A stretch of DNA of 64,000 nt from Parapedobacter lycopersici (GTDB taxonomy: Bacteria > Bacteroidota > Bacteroidia > Sphingobacteriales > Sphingobacteriaceae), in assembly GCF_024643285.1 (NCBI RefSeq), contig NZ_JAMSLW010000003.1, positions 310,001-374,000 of the forward strand, written 5' to 3'. The notes beneath the pieces were generated by a model. That model was given only the letters and a program-made list of their open reading frames with translations. It was not told where the DNA came from and did no database searches. Both the position numbers and the translations under genes were made by a program. Positions within the stretch are counted from its first letter, which is position 1. Each line of letters begins with the position of its first letter. Positions 1-46,149 of the stretch are shown here, one piece after another.

Positions 1-756
1 AGCTTCGGACTGTCTGTCAACAAAACCGTCAGCAAGATCGCCACCGGCGAGGCCAAGCCCTGTGGCGAGCATCATGTTGCAGGTGGTACGGAGAAGCCTT
101 TCCTCGCCCCACTGTCCATCCGCAAGATTCCTATGGTGGGCGAGAAGTCGTACGTACTGCTGCGTAATATGGGCATCCACCGTATCCGCACGCTGCAGGA
201 GATGGAGGTTTTCACGATGCGGCGGGTATTGGGCGAAAATGGGGTAACCATCTGGCGTAAGGCCAACGGGCTGGACGACAGTCCCGTGGTCCCGTTCCGT
301 GAGCAGAAATCGATGAGTAAGGAAACCACTTTCCATCAGGATACCATCGACATTACCCTGCTGCGCCGTACGTTGGTCGGCATGGTAGATGCATTGGCAT
401 TCGATCTCCGGCGCGATGCCAAGCTCACGGGCTGTGTTACGCTGAAAATCCGCTATTCCAATTTTGATACACATACGCAGCAGCTACGCGTCCCGTATAC
501 CAACTCGGACCGGACACTCACCGACACCGTGATGGAGCTGTTCAAGAAGCTGTACAGCCGCCGGATGCTTATCCGGCTCGTCGGCGTCAAGTTCTCGCAC
601 CTTATCCATGGCGCCTATCAGGTAGATTTGTTTAATGACAGCGAGGAGGAAGTGAACCTCATGCAGGCCATGGATCGTATCCGCACACGTTTCGGCGCGC
701 AATACATCATGAAAGGGATCTGCCTGCCGGAGGAGGGGGGTATCCATGCTACTTAA
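1..756 (+). CDS. dinB: DNA polymerase IV (DinB, Y family), 5' end cut off by the window
   Basis: Frame 1 is open from base 1. The first visible residues, around the stretch NKTVSKIATGEAKP, are typical of the region after the palm motifs of Y-family polymerases, and FLAPLSIRKIPMVGEK leads into the helix-hairpin-helix thumb. The C-terminal little-finger domain, about residues 100-251 of the visible part, is complete. The catalytic acidic motifs lie upstream and cannot be checked. The family does error-prone translesion synthesis. The gene overlaps the next polymerase gene by 11 bp, so the two are almost certainly co-transcribed and translationally coupled. The calls to family and partial status are firm; whether the enzyme is active is not visible. 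Confidence 0.93.
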   Translation, partial: SFGLSVNKTVSKIATGEAKPCGEHHVAGGTEKPFLAPLSIRKIPMVGEKSYVLLRNMGIHRIRTLQEMEVFTMRRVLGENGVTIWRKANGLDDSPVVPFREQKSMSKETTFHQDTIDITLLRRTLVGMVDALAFDLRRDAKLTGCVTLKIRYSNFDTHTQQLRVPYTNSDRTLTDTVMELFKKLYSRRMLIRLVGVKFSHLIHGAYQVDLFNDSEEEVNLMQAMDRIRTRFGAQYIMKGICLPEEGGIHAT

Positions 757-3682
757 CGTGCATAGTTATTTTTCGCTGCGTTACGGCACCCTGTCATTGG
801 AGGATTTACTACGCGGTATGCAGCAACACGGTTATGATACGGCCGTGCTCACCGATATCAACAACAGTACCGGTTCGCTGGATTTCCTGCAGAAGGGACG
901 CAAGGAAGGCCTGAATATCCTCGGTGGAATGGAATACCGTAACGGTGATGCCCTGCTGTATATCGGTATTGCGCAGAACAGTGATGGCTTCAGGGAACTC
1001 AATGAACTACGTACGCAGTATAACCGAGCCAATCGCGACCTGCCTGCACGGGCACCGGAGTTCGATAACGTGTACGTTGTTTATCCCTACGGTACGGTCA
1101 ACCCGCGGCAGCTGCGTGACAACGAATACATTGGCGTCCGCCCGGCGGAGCTTACCCGCATCCGCGTGGAACCTGTGGCCCATCAGCAACGGTACGTTAT
1201 GCTGGCCCCCGTCACCTTTGACCCGCAGGAGTACAAGCTCCATAGGCAACTTAGGGCGATCGATCACAACCTGCTGTTCTCCCAGGTGGAACCGCAGATG
1301 CTGGCTGCGGAAAATGAGGTGTTGATACCCAGGACCGAGCTCCTGGCGCTATACCGCGATTTCCCGCAGCTTATCGATAATACCCGCAGGTTACTCGGCA
1401 ACTGCTGCTTCGATTTCGATTTCAAGGTGATAAAAAACAAGCAGGTATTTACGGACAGCCACTATGGCGACAAACAGCGTCTGTATCAGCATACGGCCGA
1501 CGGATTCGCGCGGCGTTACGGAAAAGAGGACCAGACGGCATGGGTGCGCATTACACATGAACTGGAAATTATCGAGCAGCGGCACTTCGCCAGCTATTTC
1601 CTCATCACCGACGATATCTGCCGTTATGCCCGTGAGCGGAACTTTCACTACGTCGGCCGCGGCAGCGGGGCCAACAGTGCCGTGGCCTATTGCCTGGGTA
1701 TTACCGATGTCGACCCCATTGCGCTGCACCTGCCGTTTGAGCGGTTTTTGAATCCCAAACGGGATTCTCCGCCCGATTTTGATATTGACTTCAGTTGGAA
1801 TGAACGGGATGATATATACCGTTACATTTTCAATAAATACCCCTGCACTGCATTAATGGGTACGATGAGCACATTCCGTAGCCGCAGCATCCTGCGCGAA
1901 CTGGGCAAAGTATACGGCCTGCCTAAAGCAGAGATCGACCGGCTTGTGCACGAACCGGAACACGTACTCAACAAGAATGAGGTTACCGATACAATTCTTT
2001 CAGTATACGGCCGTATGGCCGATTTCCCCAACCAGCGTTCCATCCATGCCTCGGGTGTACTCATTTCCGAGCGGCCGCTTACCCACTATGCCGCCATGGA
2101 TTACCCACCCAAGGGACTGCTCACCATACAGCTGGACATGTATGTGGCCGAAAATATCGGCTTCGAGAAATTTGATATCCTCAGTCAGCGCGGCATCGGG
2201 CATATCAAAGACTGCCGGGAGATCGTCAAGGCAAATACCGGGCAAACCATCAGTACCGATAACCCTAAACGTTTCTTTACCGATCCCCGGATCGCCGCGC
2301 AGCTCAGCAGCGCCAACACCATCGGCTGCTTTTACATCGAATCGCCCGGCATGCGGCAGCTGCTCACCAAACTGCGCTGCGACAATTACCCCACCCTTGT
2401 GGCAGCATCCTCCATCATCCGTCCCGGTGTGGCCAGTAGCGGCATGATGGCCGAATACATCAGGCGGCATCACGACCCGACGGCCGTGACGTACCCGCAC
2501 CCTGTATTCCGGGAGCAGCTGGAGGAGACTTACGGCGTGATGGTTTACCAGGAAGACGTGATGAAGGTCGCCAATGCTTACGGCGGACTGGATATGGCCG
2601 ATGCCGACGTGTTGCGACGTATGATGAGTGGCAAGTACCGCGATAAGAAACCCCTGACCGAGATTGAAGACAGGTTCTTCGCCAATTGCGGGGCGCGTGG
2701 TTATGACAAACAGGTTAGCCGCGAAATCTGGCGGCAGATGGAGAGCTTCGCGGGCTACAGCTTCAACAAGGCACACTCCGCGTCTTTCGCCGTGGAGAGC
2801 TACCAGAGTCTCTACCTGAAAACTTATTATCCCAGGGAGTTCATGGTGGCCGTGCTCAACAACTACGGAGGTTTTTACAACCGGAAAGTTTATGTTAATG
2901 AAGCCAGAAGGGCAGGGGCGGAGCTTCACCTGCCGTGTGTAAACCACAGCGTTTTCAACACCACGATATATGGCAGCGACATCTACCTTGGTTTCGACTG
3001 CCTGCTCCACCTGGAAGATCGGCTTGCACGCCGCATACCCGAAGCGCGTGCAGAACACGGTAATTACACCAGTCTGGAGAATTTTGTGCTGCGCACCGGA
3101 GCTGCGCTGGAGCAGCTGGTTGTACTTATCCGCTGCGGGGCGCTGCGGTTCACGGGGATAGAAAAGAAAGCGCTGCTCTGGGAAGCCCACCTGTTGCTGT
3201 CGGGTAACAGGCGGTCGGGCGCGGAGGGTGCGCCACCGCTGTTTGAGAGCCTGCGCCGCAAACCCGTATTGCCCCGGCTGGAGACCTCGCCCGTGGAAGA
3301 CCTGTATGACGAGCTGGAACTCATTGGGTTCCCTGTATCAGGCAGTACGTTTGACCTGGCCCGGAGTAACTACCGCGGCGAGGTAATGGCGGCCGATCTG
3401 CTTGCGTACGAAGGCCGGACCATCCGCATGGTCGGCGATTTTGTAATCGATAAAAAAACGCGGACTAAACGGGGCGATGTAATGAAGTTTGGTACGTGGT
3501 TCGACGCGCGGGGTGATTTCTTTGATACGGTGCATTTCCCGCAAACGCTGCATCAGTACCCGCTGCGGGGCACCGGCCTATACCTTATTGAGGGTAAAGT
3601 GGTGGTCGATTTTGGCTGCCCAACGCTGGAAGTTACCCGCTGTGCAAAAATGCCGCTCAAGGCCGACCCCAGGAGTGAATAA
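746..3682 (+). CDS. DnaE-like DNA polymerase III alpha subunit (error-prone type, partner of DinB)
   Basis: This 978-residue C-family polymerase starts inside the end of dinB. The N-terminal PHP domain begins with NVHSYFSLRYGT, but the usual TDH metal motif reads LTDINN, so the PHP site looks degenerate. The palm carries PPDFDIDF, which supplies the two catalytic aspartates, and EKFDILSQRG, which supplies the third. Helix-hairpin-helix regions and an OB fold (about residues 880-970) follow. It is shorter than a replicative DnaE (about 1160 residues) and resembles the accessory DnaE2/ImuC lineage. With DinB it forms a two-gene translesion cassette, distinct from the imuA-imuB-dnaE2 set about 40 kb away. 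The family call is firm; the damage-tolerance role is inferred from context. Confidence 0.9.
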   Translation: MLLNVHSYFSLRYGTLSLEDLLRGMQQHGYDTAVLTDINNSTGSLDFLQKGRKEGLNILGGMEYRNGDALLYIGIAQNSDGFRELNELRTQYNRANRDLPARAPEFDNVYVVYPYGTVNPRQLRDNEYIGVRPAELTRIRVEPVAHQQRYVMLAPVTFDPQEYKLHRQLRAIDHNLLFSQVEPQMLAAENEVLIPRTELLALYRDFPQLIDNTRRLLGNCCFDFDFKVIKNKQVFTDSHYGDKQRLYQHTADGFARRYGKEDQTAWVRITHELEIIEQRHFASYFLITDDICRYARERNFHYVGRGSGANSAVAYCLGITDVDPIALHLPFERFLNPKRDSPPDFDIDFSWNERDDIYRYIFNKYPCTALMGTMSTFRSRSILRELGKVYGLPKAEIDRLVHEPEHVLNKNEVTDTILSVYGRMADFPNQRSIHASGVLISERPLTHYAAMDYPPKGLLTIQLDMYVAENIGFEKFDILSQRGIGHIKDCREIVKANTGQTISTDNPKRFFTDPRIAAQLSSANTIGCFYIESPGMRQLLTKLRCDNYPTLVAASSIIRPGVASSGMMAEYIRRHHDPTAVTYPHPVFREQLEETYGVMVYQEDVMKVANAYGGLDMADADVLRRMMSGKYRDKKPLTEIEDRFFANCGARGYDKQVSREIWRQMESFAGYSFNKAHSASFAVESYQSLYLKTYYPREFMVAVLNNYGGFYNRKVYVNEARRAGAELHLPCVNHSVFNTTIYGSDIYLGFDCLLHLEDRLARRIPEARAEHGNYTSLENFVLRTGAALEQLVVLIRCGALRFTGIEKKALLWEAHLLLSGNRRSGAEGAPPLFESLRRKPVLPRLETSPVEDLYDELELIGFPVSGSTFDLARSNYRGEVMAADLLAYEGRTIRMVGDFVIDKKTRTKRGDVMKFGTWFDARGDFFDTVHFPQTLHQYPLRGTGLYLIEGKVVVDFGCPTLEVTRCAKMPLKADPRSE

Positions 3683-40545: not shown

Positions 40546-42048
40546 CTAAGCGAAAAACCCATGGATAAACCACCGCTTGGGGCGTTCATCGTCATAATGC
40601 CCCGAGCGGAACAGCCAGTACCGTCGGCCCTGGTCGTCCTCCACATAGTAGTAATCCCGGTGCTCGCCTTCGTCCATCCACCATTCACGTGCAATACGCT
40701 CGGGTCCATCCGCCCTTTTTACCTGGTGCACCGTGCCCTGGTACCGGAATACCATGGGTGGGTAATCCGGTATGGGCGCCGTTACATCTATCGGTTCCGG
40801 CCTGGCCAGCAGCCGCACGGGCCGGGGCCGGTCAGTGCGCCAGGCACTGGCAACCGGCTCGCTAATGGCCGTTGCCCGCCTGATCGACCGTTCCGGCCAG
40901 TGGTGCTCGTCGGGCAGGTAACGGCTTACCGTACAGCAGTTGTCCCTGCCCGTCAGCCGGTCCAGCAGCTCGGCCAGTGCGGTATCTCCAAGCCCCTGTT
41001 CGCTGCCCCACAGCGCTTCCTGCACCGGGTCCGCATCTTCCACCTTCGGTGCCTGCAATACAAACAGCTCAATGCCCAGGCCCGGTTCCAGCAGGGGTGT
41101 TTTCAGCGCGAAAAGCTTAAACAGGTGTGCGGCGTTGGCCGTAGCGCGGTTGGTGCCGATAGCTACCTGCACGGTTTTGCCATCAATGCGATAACCCATC
41201 AGCGTCGCCTTTCGCAGTCCCTTGCCCTCGCCGAGCAGCCGTCGGCATAAGGTCTCCAGTAGCCGTTGTACCGCAATCTCAATTCCGGTGGCCGTGCAGA
41301 TGGGTTCCAGGCAGGGCAGCCGCTCCTCATACGGAGGCACCGGCTGCAGGGGCTGCAGGTATTCCGCCTCCTGGCCCAGCGCCTGCCGCAGCCGTAGCAG
41401 CAGCCCGTCACCAAAGCGCCGGCGCAGCACGGCCGGTGGCATGCCCATAAATGTGCCGATAGTGCGGAGCCCTAATTTCTCCAACCGCAGCAGCACCTCC
41501 GGCGGCAGGCGCAGCGCGGCAGGAGGGAGGGCAGGCAGGATGTCCAGCTGGGTACCCCGTTTTACAATAGCTGCCCCCGTCCCGAAGCGCGCTACCGCCC
41601 AGGCAGTGCCGATGGTATCGGCAATGGCTATCCGCACCTGATAGCCCTTACTGCCCAGCCGGGTAGCGATCTCTTCGAGGTATAACTGCTCACCGCCCCA
41701 CAGATGCGCGCAGCCGCTGATATCCAGTGTCAGTCCGTCGGGTGGGGCTACGGCCACCGTAGGCGTATAGCGGATGCACCACAACCCCAGCGCTTTCAGC
41801 AGCCTGCCGGCCAGCCCCGGCCGGTCGTCCAGCACCAGCAACTGCGGCACGGACGCCCGGGCATCCGCCGCCGCCATTCCGGCGGTTACACCCTGCGCCT
41901 CCGCCGCTGGGCTAACCGCTGATATCACCATGCGACCATGAACGGGTGCCGCAAGGGCAAAAAGCCCGCCCCGCAGTTCCGGCCGGCGGATAGCCAGCCA
42001 GTCCGTCGTTAAATAACGGAACCATATGGCAGCAAAGCGTCCTGTCAT
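40546..42048 (-). CDS. imuB: ImuB, inactive Y-family polymerase of the mutasome
   Basis: A 500-residue protein of Y-family fold. The palm region reads IWFRYLTTDW at the first catalytic position and LTLDISGCAHLWGGE at the second, so the acidic metal ligands are missing, as in known ImuB. In Caulobacter, Pseudomonas and Mycobacterium ImuB is a hub that links DnaE2, ImuA and the beta clamp. The C-terminal part (about 410-500) ends with YYYVEDDQGRRYWLFRSGHY, the DUF6504-type tail. It starts 6 bp after imuA stops. Confidence 0.9.
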   Translation of the reverse strand: MTGRFAAIWFRYLTTDWLAIRRPELRGGLFALAAPVHGRMVISAVSPAAEAQGVTAGMAAADARASVPQLLVLDDRPGLAGRLLKALGLWCIRYTPTVAVAPPDGLTLDISGCAHLWGGEQLYLEEIATRLGSKGYQVRIAIADTIGTAWAVARFGTGAAIVKRGTQLDILPALPPAALRLPPEVLLRLEKLGLRTIGTFMGMPPAVLRRRFGDGLLLRLRQALGQEAEYLQPLQPVPPYEERLPCLEPICTATGIEIAVQRLLETLCRRLLGEGKGLRKATLMGYRIDGKTVQVAIGTNRATANAAHLFKLFALKTPLLEPGLGIELFVLQAPKVEDADPVQEALWGSEQGLGDTALAELLDRLTGRDNCCTVSRYLPDEHHWPERSIRRATAISEPVASAWRTDRPRPVRLLARPEPIDVTAPIPDYPPMVFRYQGTVHQVKRADGPERIAREWWMDEGEHRDYYYVEDDQGRRYWLFRSGHYDDERPKRWFIHGFFA

Positions 42049-42054
42049 CGTACA

Positions 42055-42810
42055 TCACCCTGTTCGTTGTTCCGGCACCAGCCGTTCCGGCAGTGCCACC
42101 GTCTGTTTGTGCGGGTCAGCCACCGGAGCAAACCGGCCTGCAGCCCATTCCAGTGTCCAGGCCCCCGGACTGCCATTGCGCACTTTTAGCAGTTCCACCC
42201 GCCAGCGGGGCAGTCCCACGCCCGGCATCCCCGCCTCCGGCGCGCTGGGAGCCGGACTAACCTGCCAGCGGGCAGCACAGGCCGTATTGCCTATGCGGAG
42301 CGGCTGGCTGCGCAGCACAAAGCCCGTCACGCGGCTTTGCTCCACGGCCAGCTGCAGCCGCCGCGACTGCGCAAAATCCAGCTCGCGCAGCTCGGCCACC
42401 ACAGCCGCCAGGCCGCTGCACTTAAGCGCTTCCTCCGTGGCCCATAAAATATCTCTTTCGCGTTTCATATCAATAAAAACAATGCGGTCCGGCGTTACGC
42501 CAAAAGCCCCGATCGCCGGGGGGAAAAGCGTCCGCGATGCACTGATCCAGAGGCACACACCTTCCTGCCGCATAAGCCGGGTCAGCAGCCCCCCGATAAA
42601 CCCGCTGGAAGCCGCTGCCTGCTCCGGGGCCGCAGCGATAAACTCGTGGATGCTGCCGGCGGGAAACACCCCGTTCGGAAATGCCCGTTCCACCGGCCCC
42701 AGGCTCATGCGCACAGTATGCCTGGCCGTTGCCTGATAGCCCTGCCAATGCAGCATTTTCCGCTGCAACTGGCTGATTACCTCCCTTTTGTTTTCCGCTG
42801 TTACTATCAT
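42055..42810 (-). CDS. imuA: ImuA, RecA-like mutasome accessory protein
   Basis: A 251-residue protein. FPAGSIHEFIAAAPEQAAAS is the ImuA/SulA-type version of the RecA fold, without a normal Walker A, and FVLRSQPLRIGNTACAARW matches the conserved second half. ImuA is required for DnaE2-dependent mutagenesis in species that carry it. First gene of the imuA-imuB operon, divergent from dnaE2. Confidence 0.88.
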   Translation of the reverse strand: MIVTAENKREVISQLQRKMLHWQGYQATARHTVRMSLGPVERAFPNGVFPAGSIHEFIAAAPEQAAASSGFIGGLLTRLMRQEGVCLWISASRTLFPPAIGAFGVTPDRIVFIDMKRERDILWATEEALKCSGLAAVVAELRELDFAQSRRLQLAVEQSRVTGFVLRSQPLRIGNTACAARWQVSPAPSAPEAGMPGVGLPRWRVELLKVRNGSPGAWTLEWAAGRFAPVADPHKQTVALPERLVPEQRTG

Positions 42811-42841
42811 GGCTCCATCCGTTACCCTCCTGGGCAGTAAG

Positions 42842-42866
42842 CAAAGTTAACACTAATAATATTAGT
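42842..42866 (-). promoter_or_regulatory. imuA promoter -7 box with operator copy 1
   Basis: On the minus strand TAACTTTG (42849-42842) is a TAnnTTTG box 32 bp before the ATG. Immediately upstream is a perfect inverted repeat, ACTAATA-a-TATTAGT (42852-42866), whose core is CTAAT-N3-ATTAG. A repressor bound there would block the promoter. Confidence 0.65.
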
Positions 42867-42928
42867 AATAAACTGTTTTGTTTAATATTGTTTTTATCTA
42901 AATTATTGAAACACCACTAAATCAATGC

Positions 42929-42959
42929 TTGACGGCTAATATAATTAGTAATATATTTG
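42929..42959 (+). promoter_or_regulatory. dnaE2 promoter with operator copy 2 between -33 and -7
   Basis: TTG (42929-42931) and TATATTTG (42952-42959) are 20 bp apart. CTAAT-ATA-ATTAG (42936-42948), the same core as copy 1 and followed by the same TAATA, sits between them. It is the natural place for SOS-type repression of the mutasome; the regulator is not in the window. Confidence 0.65.
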
Positions 42960-43005
42960 TCCAATACACCCGAAATTGCCAATAATATGGCTTAAAACGT
43001 GCAGT

Positions 43006-46149
<3,144 letters not shown>

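What the first reader, a model, noticed from the sequence alone, without database searches (positions are those of the whole stretch)
42811..43005. Twin CTAAT-N3-ATTAG operators on the divergent imuA and dnaE2 promoters
Two copies of CTAAT-N3-ATTAG-TAATA lie 83 bp apart. One touches the imuA -7 box (TAACTTTG), the other lies between the -33 TTG and -7 TATATTTG of dnaE2. The symmetry suggests one dimeric repressor silencing both arms. The motif is not the E. coli or Gram-positive SOS box. No lexA-like gene is in the window, so the repressor acts in trans. It could define the damage-response box of this lineage.
Basis: partly seen in the sequence, partly recalled or inferred. Interest (0 to 1): 0.75.

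Follow-up and report, generated by a model that had tools for sequence, protein, structure and literature searches.

The report
Twin SOS boxes on split mutasome genes
The two palindromes are the already-described DNA-damage (SOS) switch sites of the Bacteroidetes LexA-like repressor, one for each half of an error-prone DNA-copying gene cassette that in this bacterium is unusually arranged back to back instead of as one operon.

Summary
Two perfect CTAAT-N3-ATTAG sites lie 83 bp apart in the 195-bp spacer between divergent imuA-imuB and dnaE2. Each ends exactly 3 nt before a Bacteroidetes -7 box (TAnnTTTG), in mirror image (none in shuffles). The motif is not new. It is the CTAA-N5-TTAG SOS box of the non-canonical LexA proteins of Bacteroidetes (Sanchez-Osuna 2021, PMC8565304), shown there by gel shift, with imuA-imuB-dnaE2 listed as a target. 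The genome encodes the matching regulator in trans: HTH_3 + Peptidase_S24, 257 aa, with Ala-Gly cleavage site, Ser/Lys dyad and its own box at -38. Its orthologues in all 24 family genomes examined carry the box. Further perfect boxes precede dinB-dnaE, a DnaQ/GIY-YIG exonuclease, an SplB-like gene, uvrA and a 2'-5' RNA ligase-like gene. What is unusual is the arrangement. In all 75 related loci where imuA was found, imuA-imuB-dnaE2 is one co-directional operon. Here the cassette is split and divergent, with one box per arm. One relative in the genus has a different split, each piece again boxed. Verdict: new member of a known regulon, with an uncommon gene arrangement. Repression itself is inferred, not measured.

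The parts
42853..42865 (-). SOS box 1 (CTAATATTATTAG read with imuA), between -33 and -7 of the imuA promoter
   Evidence: exact match; geometry
42842..42849 (-). -7 element TAACTTTG of imuA, 3 nt after box 1
   Evidence: consensus TTTG/TAnnTTTG from PMC6847099
42936..42948 (+). SOS box 2 (CTAATATAATTAG) between -33 and -7 of the dnaE2 promoter
   Evidence: exact match; geometry
42952..42959 (+). -7 element TATATTTG of dnaE2, 3 nt after box 2; TTG at 42929-42931 is the -33, 20 nt upstream
42055..42810 (-). imuA (251 aa)
   Evidence: NCBIfam NF033429 ImuA, E 8.9e-21, below the curated cut-off; 42-67% identical to ImuA next to imuB-dnaE2 in relatives
40546..42048 (-). imuB (500 aa), Y-family polymerase homologue
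   Evidence: Pfam IMS; 51-70% identical to ImuB of relatives
43006..46149 (+). dnaE2 (1047 aa), error-prone DNA polymerase
   Evidence: NCBIfam PRK05672 error-prone polymerase, 1377 bits over the cut-off of 939
1..754 (+). 3' part of dinB (gene starts 411 bp before base 1; its SOS box CTAAAATAATTAG lies 427-439 bp before base 1, contig C16:309562-309574)
749..3680 (+). second dnaE-type gene following dinB, same SOS promoter by position
   Evidence: TIGR00594 over cut-off

Best explanation
The two palindromes are LexA-type SOS operators of the Bacteroidetes CTAA-N5-TTAG class. A dimer of the genome's CI-like S24 repressor (257 aa, contig C1:146213-146983) sits on each box, between the -33 and -7 elements, and blocks RNA polymerase at both the imuA-imuB and dnaE2 promoters. 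On DNA damage, RecA filaments trigger self-cleavage of the repressor at Ala-Gly; both arms are released together and the ImuA-ImuB-DnaE2 mutasome is made. In this genome the usual imuA-imuB-dnaE2 operon has been split into two divergent units, and co-regulation is kept by one box per unit. Shown by sequence: boxes, promoter geometry, regulator with cleavage residues and own box, regulon, conservation, unusual gene order. Inferred: binding, cleavage, induction, and cooperation of the three proteins.
For: Motif identity with the published box and target list, tested there by gel shift and mutagenesis (PMC8565304). Regulator: HTH_3 + Peptidase_S24, KASAGY cleavage site, GDSM and VYKR, own box at -38. 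All 24 family orthologues carry a perfect box within 110 bp. Regulon in this genome: dinB-dnaE, exonuclease/GIY-YIG (465 aa), PA0069/SplB-like radical SAM, uvrA, 2'-5' RNA ligase-like, lexA. recA has a one-mismatch CGAA-N5-TTAG in all 9 genus genomes. dinB box perfect in 6 of 7 close orthologues; RNA ligase-like box perfect in 8 of 9. Of 39 boxes at imuA/solo dnaE2 promoters of related Bacteroidota, 27 have TAnnTTTG exactly 3 nt downstream, against 0.002 per position. Layout: 75 of 75 related loci with imuA are co-directional.
Against: No binding or expression data for this organism. The regulator's orthology to the tested proteins was judged by domains, motif, residues and autoregulation, not by aligning to the published accession. 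About half of the 19 perfect genome sites lie in genes, a terminator or a TetR locus, and the reversed control pattern is commoner (80), so the bare motif is a weak predictor.
Confidence: 0.9

Rival explanations
1. The palindromes are chance AT-rich matches in an AT-rich spacer, without function.
For: In 64 kb 0.88 CTAA-N5-TTAG are expected by chance; the spacer is 68% A+T.
Against: Two in one spacer in 1 of 20,000 shuffles; identical 3-nt spacing to both -7 boxes with 0 expected; same module before imuA in relatives.
Confidence: 0.03
2. The sites bind a different dimeric regulator, for instance one of the two other S24 proteins (C16:137262, C18:218429) rather than the LexA-like protein.
For: Two other S24-domain proteins exist in the genome.
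Against: No perfect CTAA-N5-TTAG site of the genome lies at either of these two genes, and neither shows an obvious Ala-Gly before the peptidase domain when read by eye. Only the C1 gene has the self-operator, shared by its orthologues.
Confidence: 0.05
3. The two operators form one cooperative unit: dimers 83 bp apart, about 8 helical turns, on one face, loop or contact each other so that the arms switch together, beyond independent repression.
For: 83 bp is 7.9 turns at 10.5 bp; in another genus of the family, six nth-recA spacers examined also have two boxes 82-83 bp apart.
Against: No structural or binding evidence; the nth-side box is at the 3' end of a coding sequence; single boxes stand before imuA in relatives; the spacing search itself was limited to 68-98 bp.
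Confidence: 0.08

Closest known systems
Non-canonical LexA / CTAA-N5-TTAG SOS system of Bacteroidetes (Sanchez-Osuna et al. 2021, PMC8565304)
   Same: Same palindrome, same regulator architecture, self-regulation, and overlapping target list (dinB, exonuclease/GIY-YIG, splB, imuA-imuB-dnaE2); recA here has only a one-mismatch box
   Different: Here the cassette is divergent with one box per arm; uvrA and a 2'-5' RNA ligase-like gene are also preceded by boxes, neither of which is mentioned in the paper's main text
imuA-imuB-dnaE2 adaptive mutagenesis cassette
   Same: All three genes, adjacent, under SOS boxes
   Different: Divergent units instead of one operon. Split cassettes are known in mycobacteria (imuA'-imuB / dnaE2; PMC6511836)
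   Same: imuAB and dnaE2 separately transcribed, each with its own box
   Different: The pieces lie apart (imuAB on another contig) and there are two solo dnaE2 genes; no shared divergent spacer

Membership tests
Bacteroidetes non-canonical LexA SOS regulon (CTAA-N5-TTAG group) | CTAA-N5-TTAG palindrome in the promoter | tested here: met
   two perfect copies
Bacteroidetes non-canonical LexA SOS regulon (CTAA-N5-TTAG group) | regulator with PF01381-type HTH and S24 peptidase, Ala-Gly site and Ser/Lys dyad | tested here: met
Bacteroidetes non-canonical LexA SOS regulon (CTAA-N5-TTAG group) | regulator gene carries its own box | tested here: met
   CTAATTTATTTAG at -38; 24 of 24 family orthologues have a box
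Bacteroidetes non-canonical LexA SOS regulon (CTAA-N5-TTAG group) | boxes at core SOS genes (recA, dinB, splB, error-prone polymerases) | tested here: met
   recA only with one mismatch
Bacteroidetes non-canonical LexA SOS regulon (CTAA-N5-TTAG group) | sequence-specific binding and damage induction | not testable with these tools
   needs gel shift and RT-qPCR
imuA-imuB-dnaE2 cassette | all three genes adjacent | tested here: met
imuA-imuB-dnaE2 cassette | single co-directional operon, as usual in relatives | tested here: not met
   divergent here; 75 of 75 related loci with imuA co-directional. Split cassettes are accepted as the same system in mycobacteria (PMC6511836)

The most novel reading that the evidence does not exclude
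A previously undescribed layout of the mutagenesis cassette: imuA-imuB and dnaE2 as divergent units with mirror-image LexA-controlled promoters in one 195-bp spacer, possibly switching cooperatively, showing that when the operon breaks each piece keeps or regains its own SOS box at the same promoter position.
Probability: 0.4. Interest if true: 0.4.

Novelty: new member of a known kind. Interest (0 to 1): 0.3.

Why it matters
It extends a published SOS network to a genus not named in the main text of that paper and gives a precise rule for where the repressor sits (box, 3 nt, -7 element). It also offers a clean example of an operon broken into separately promoted parts that stay under the same repressor, which is a testable case of how regulons survive rearrangement. 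It does not reveal a new regulator or a new damage box.

Tried and rejected
The idea that the window's dnaE2 promoter is the old operon promoter left behind after loss of imuA-imuB looked tempting (TAATATATTTGT...CCAA shared with Olivibacter imuA promoters, and a leftover ATGGCTTAA), but it did not beat shuffles (47 of 300 as good). The same test does support it for one solo dnaE2 of genome G003 (0 of 300). Trees of dnaE2 and imuB did not place the window's genes with useful support, so whether the two arms share one history is open. A family-wide search for twin boxes 68-98 bp apart was read in detail for 30 loci only; none but the window's own was an imuA/dnaE2 pair. The bare palindrome count is not significant by itself and was not used as evidence.

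Full report
OBSERVATION. The spacer 42811-43005 separates imuA (42055-42810, minus; followed by imuB, 40546-42048, minus) from dnaE2 (43006-46149, plus). It holds CTAATAATATTAG at 42853-42865 and CTAATATAATTAG at 42936-42948, 83 bp apart. The palindrome alone is unremarkable in 64 kb (0.88 expected), so the case rests on placement. Two copies in a 195-bp spacer occurred in 1 of 20,000 dinucleotide shuffles for CTAA-N5-TTAG and in none for CTAAT-N3-ATTAG. Each copy ends exactly 3 nt before a TAnnTTTG element on the strand of the gene it serves; this full module occurs only at these two places in the window, with 0.00 expected. TTTG/TAnnTTTG is the known -33/-7 promoter of Bacteroidetes (PMC6847099). 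The dnaE2 side has TTG 20 nt before its -7 element; the imuA side has a weaker TTT.

WHAT IT IS. The motif is the published SOS box CTAA-N5-TTAG of the non-canonical LexA proteins of Bacteroidetes (PMC8565304). That work found the box upstream of umuDC, recA, recN, dinB, ruvB, splB, imuA-imuB-dnaE2 and others, showed by gel shift and mutagenesis that the Pontibacter actiniarum protein needs both arms and the spacer length, and reports that several regulated promoters carry two or more boxes. Sphingobacteriaceae are named there as having large regulons of this type. The nearest genomes here are Parapedobacter and Olivibacter, in that family.

THE REGULATOR. The genome has three S24 proteins. 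One, at C1:146213-146983 (257 aa), has an HTH_3 domain and a Peptidase_S24 domain, the cleavage context KASAGY, GDSM and VYKR, and a perfect box CTAATTTATTTAG 38 bp before its start, with a second near-box CTAATTTTATTGG 23 bp further upstream. Its orthologues in all 24 family genomes examined, this one included, carry a perfect box within 110 bp of the start.

THE REGULON. The rest lie mostly in or beside genes unrelated to repair, a terminator or a TetR-efflux locus. In the genus, the dinB box is perfect in 6 of 7 close orthologues and the RNA ligase-like box in 8 of 9; recA has CGAA-N5-TTAG, one mismatch, in all nine genomes.

CONSERVATION AND GEOMETRY. Among 80 loci of related dnaE2 genes, 39 boxes precede imuA or a solo dnaE2; 27 of them have TAnnTTTG exactly 3 nt after the box, against 0.002 per position by chance. 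The repressor therefore sits at a fixed place between -33 and -7, and both window promoters follow this rule. Many of the more distant loci (for example Prolixibacter, Flavobacterium) show no perfect box.

THE UNUSUAL PART. In all 75 of these loci where imuA was found it reads in the same direction as imuB and dnaE2, and none of those 75 has a box within 400 bp before dnaE2. Genus and family genomes searched separately agree. The window's genome is the only one seen with divergent units. A second genus member, G003, is split differently: imuAB alone with a box, and two solo dnaE2 genes, each with a box. One of these solo genes retains a recognisable imuA promoter (0 of 300 shuffles as good), implying loss of imuA-imuB from a cassette copy; the window's dnaE2 promoter gave no such signal (47 of 300), and trees were unresolved. 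How the divergent layout arose is unknown.

MECHANISM. Best reading (0.9): independent repression of both arms by the same LexA-like dimer, released by RecA-driven cleavage. Sequence evidence covers boxes, promoter geometry, regulator and regulon; binding, cleavage and induction are inferred from the tested relatives. Cooperation between the boxes (83 bp, about 8 turns) is possible but unsupported.

VERDICT. Observation confirmed, interpretation supported, motif and regulator already known. The remaining new element is the divergent, doubly boxed cassette.

Noticed in passing
window 1-3680 and contig C16:309562-309574: A dinB-dnaE cassette crosses the start of the window; its perfect SOS box lies 427-439 bp before base 1, with a one-mismatch box 34 bp further upstream.
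   Followed up: yes
L013 1501-2127 (C12:201553); L248-L256: A 2'-5' RNA ligase superfamily gene has a perfect SOS box 30-45 bp before its start in 8 of 9 genomes of the genus, often with a second near-box about 62 bp upstream: a conserved SOS target not mentioned in the main text of PMC8565304.
   Followed up: partly
L164, L166, L169, L177, L182, L185: In another genus of the family (code g13) the nth-recA spacer has two CTAA-N5-TTAG boxes 82-83 bp apart, one at the 3' end of nth and one at the recA promoter, nearly the spacing of the window's pair.
   Followed up: partly
L022 1536-1548 (C21:85435-85447): Perfect box CTAAAAAAATTAG about 80 bp upstream of uvrA.
   Followed up: no
L147, L144, L191 (genome G003): The cassette is broken into imuA-imuB and two solo dnaE2 genes, each with its own SOS box; one solo promoter is clearly a former imuA promoter.
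   Followed up: partly
L010/L011 (C1:695028 and 695685): Two CTAAC-N3-GTTAG palindromes lie about a TetR-like gene next to an efflux-like gene: probably a TetR operator that only mimics the SOS box.
   Followed up: no
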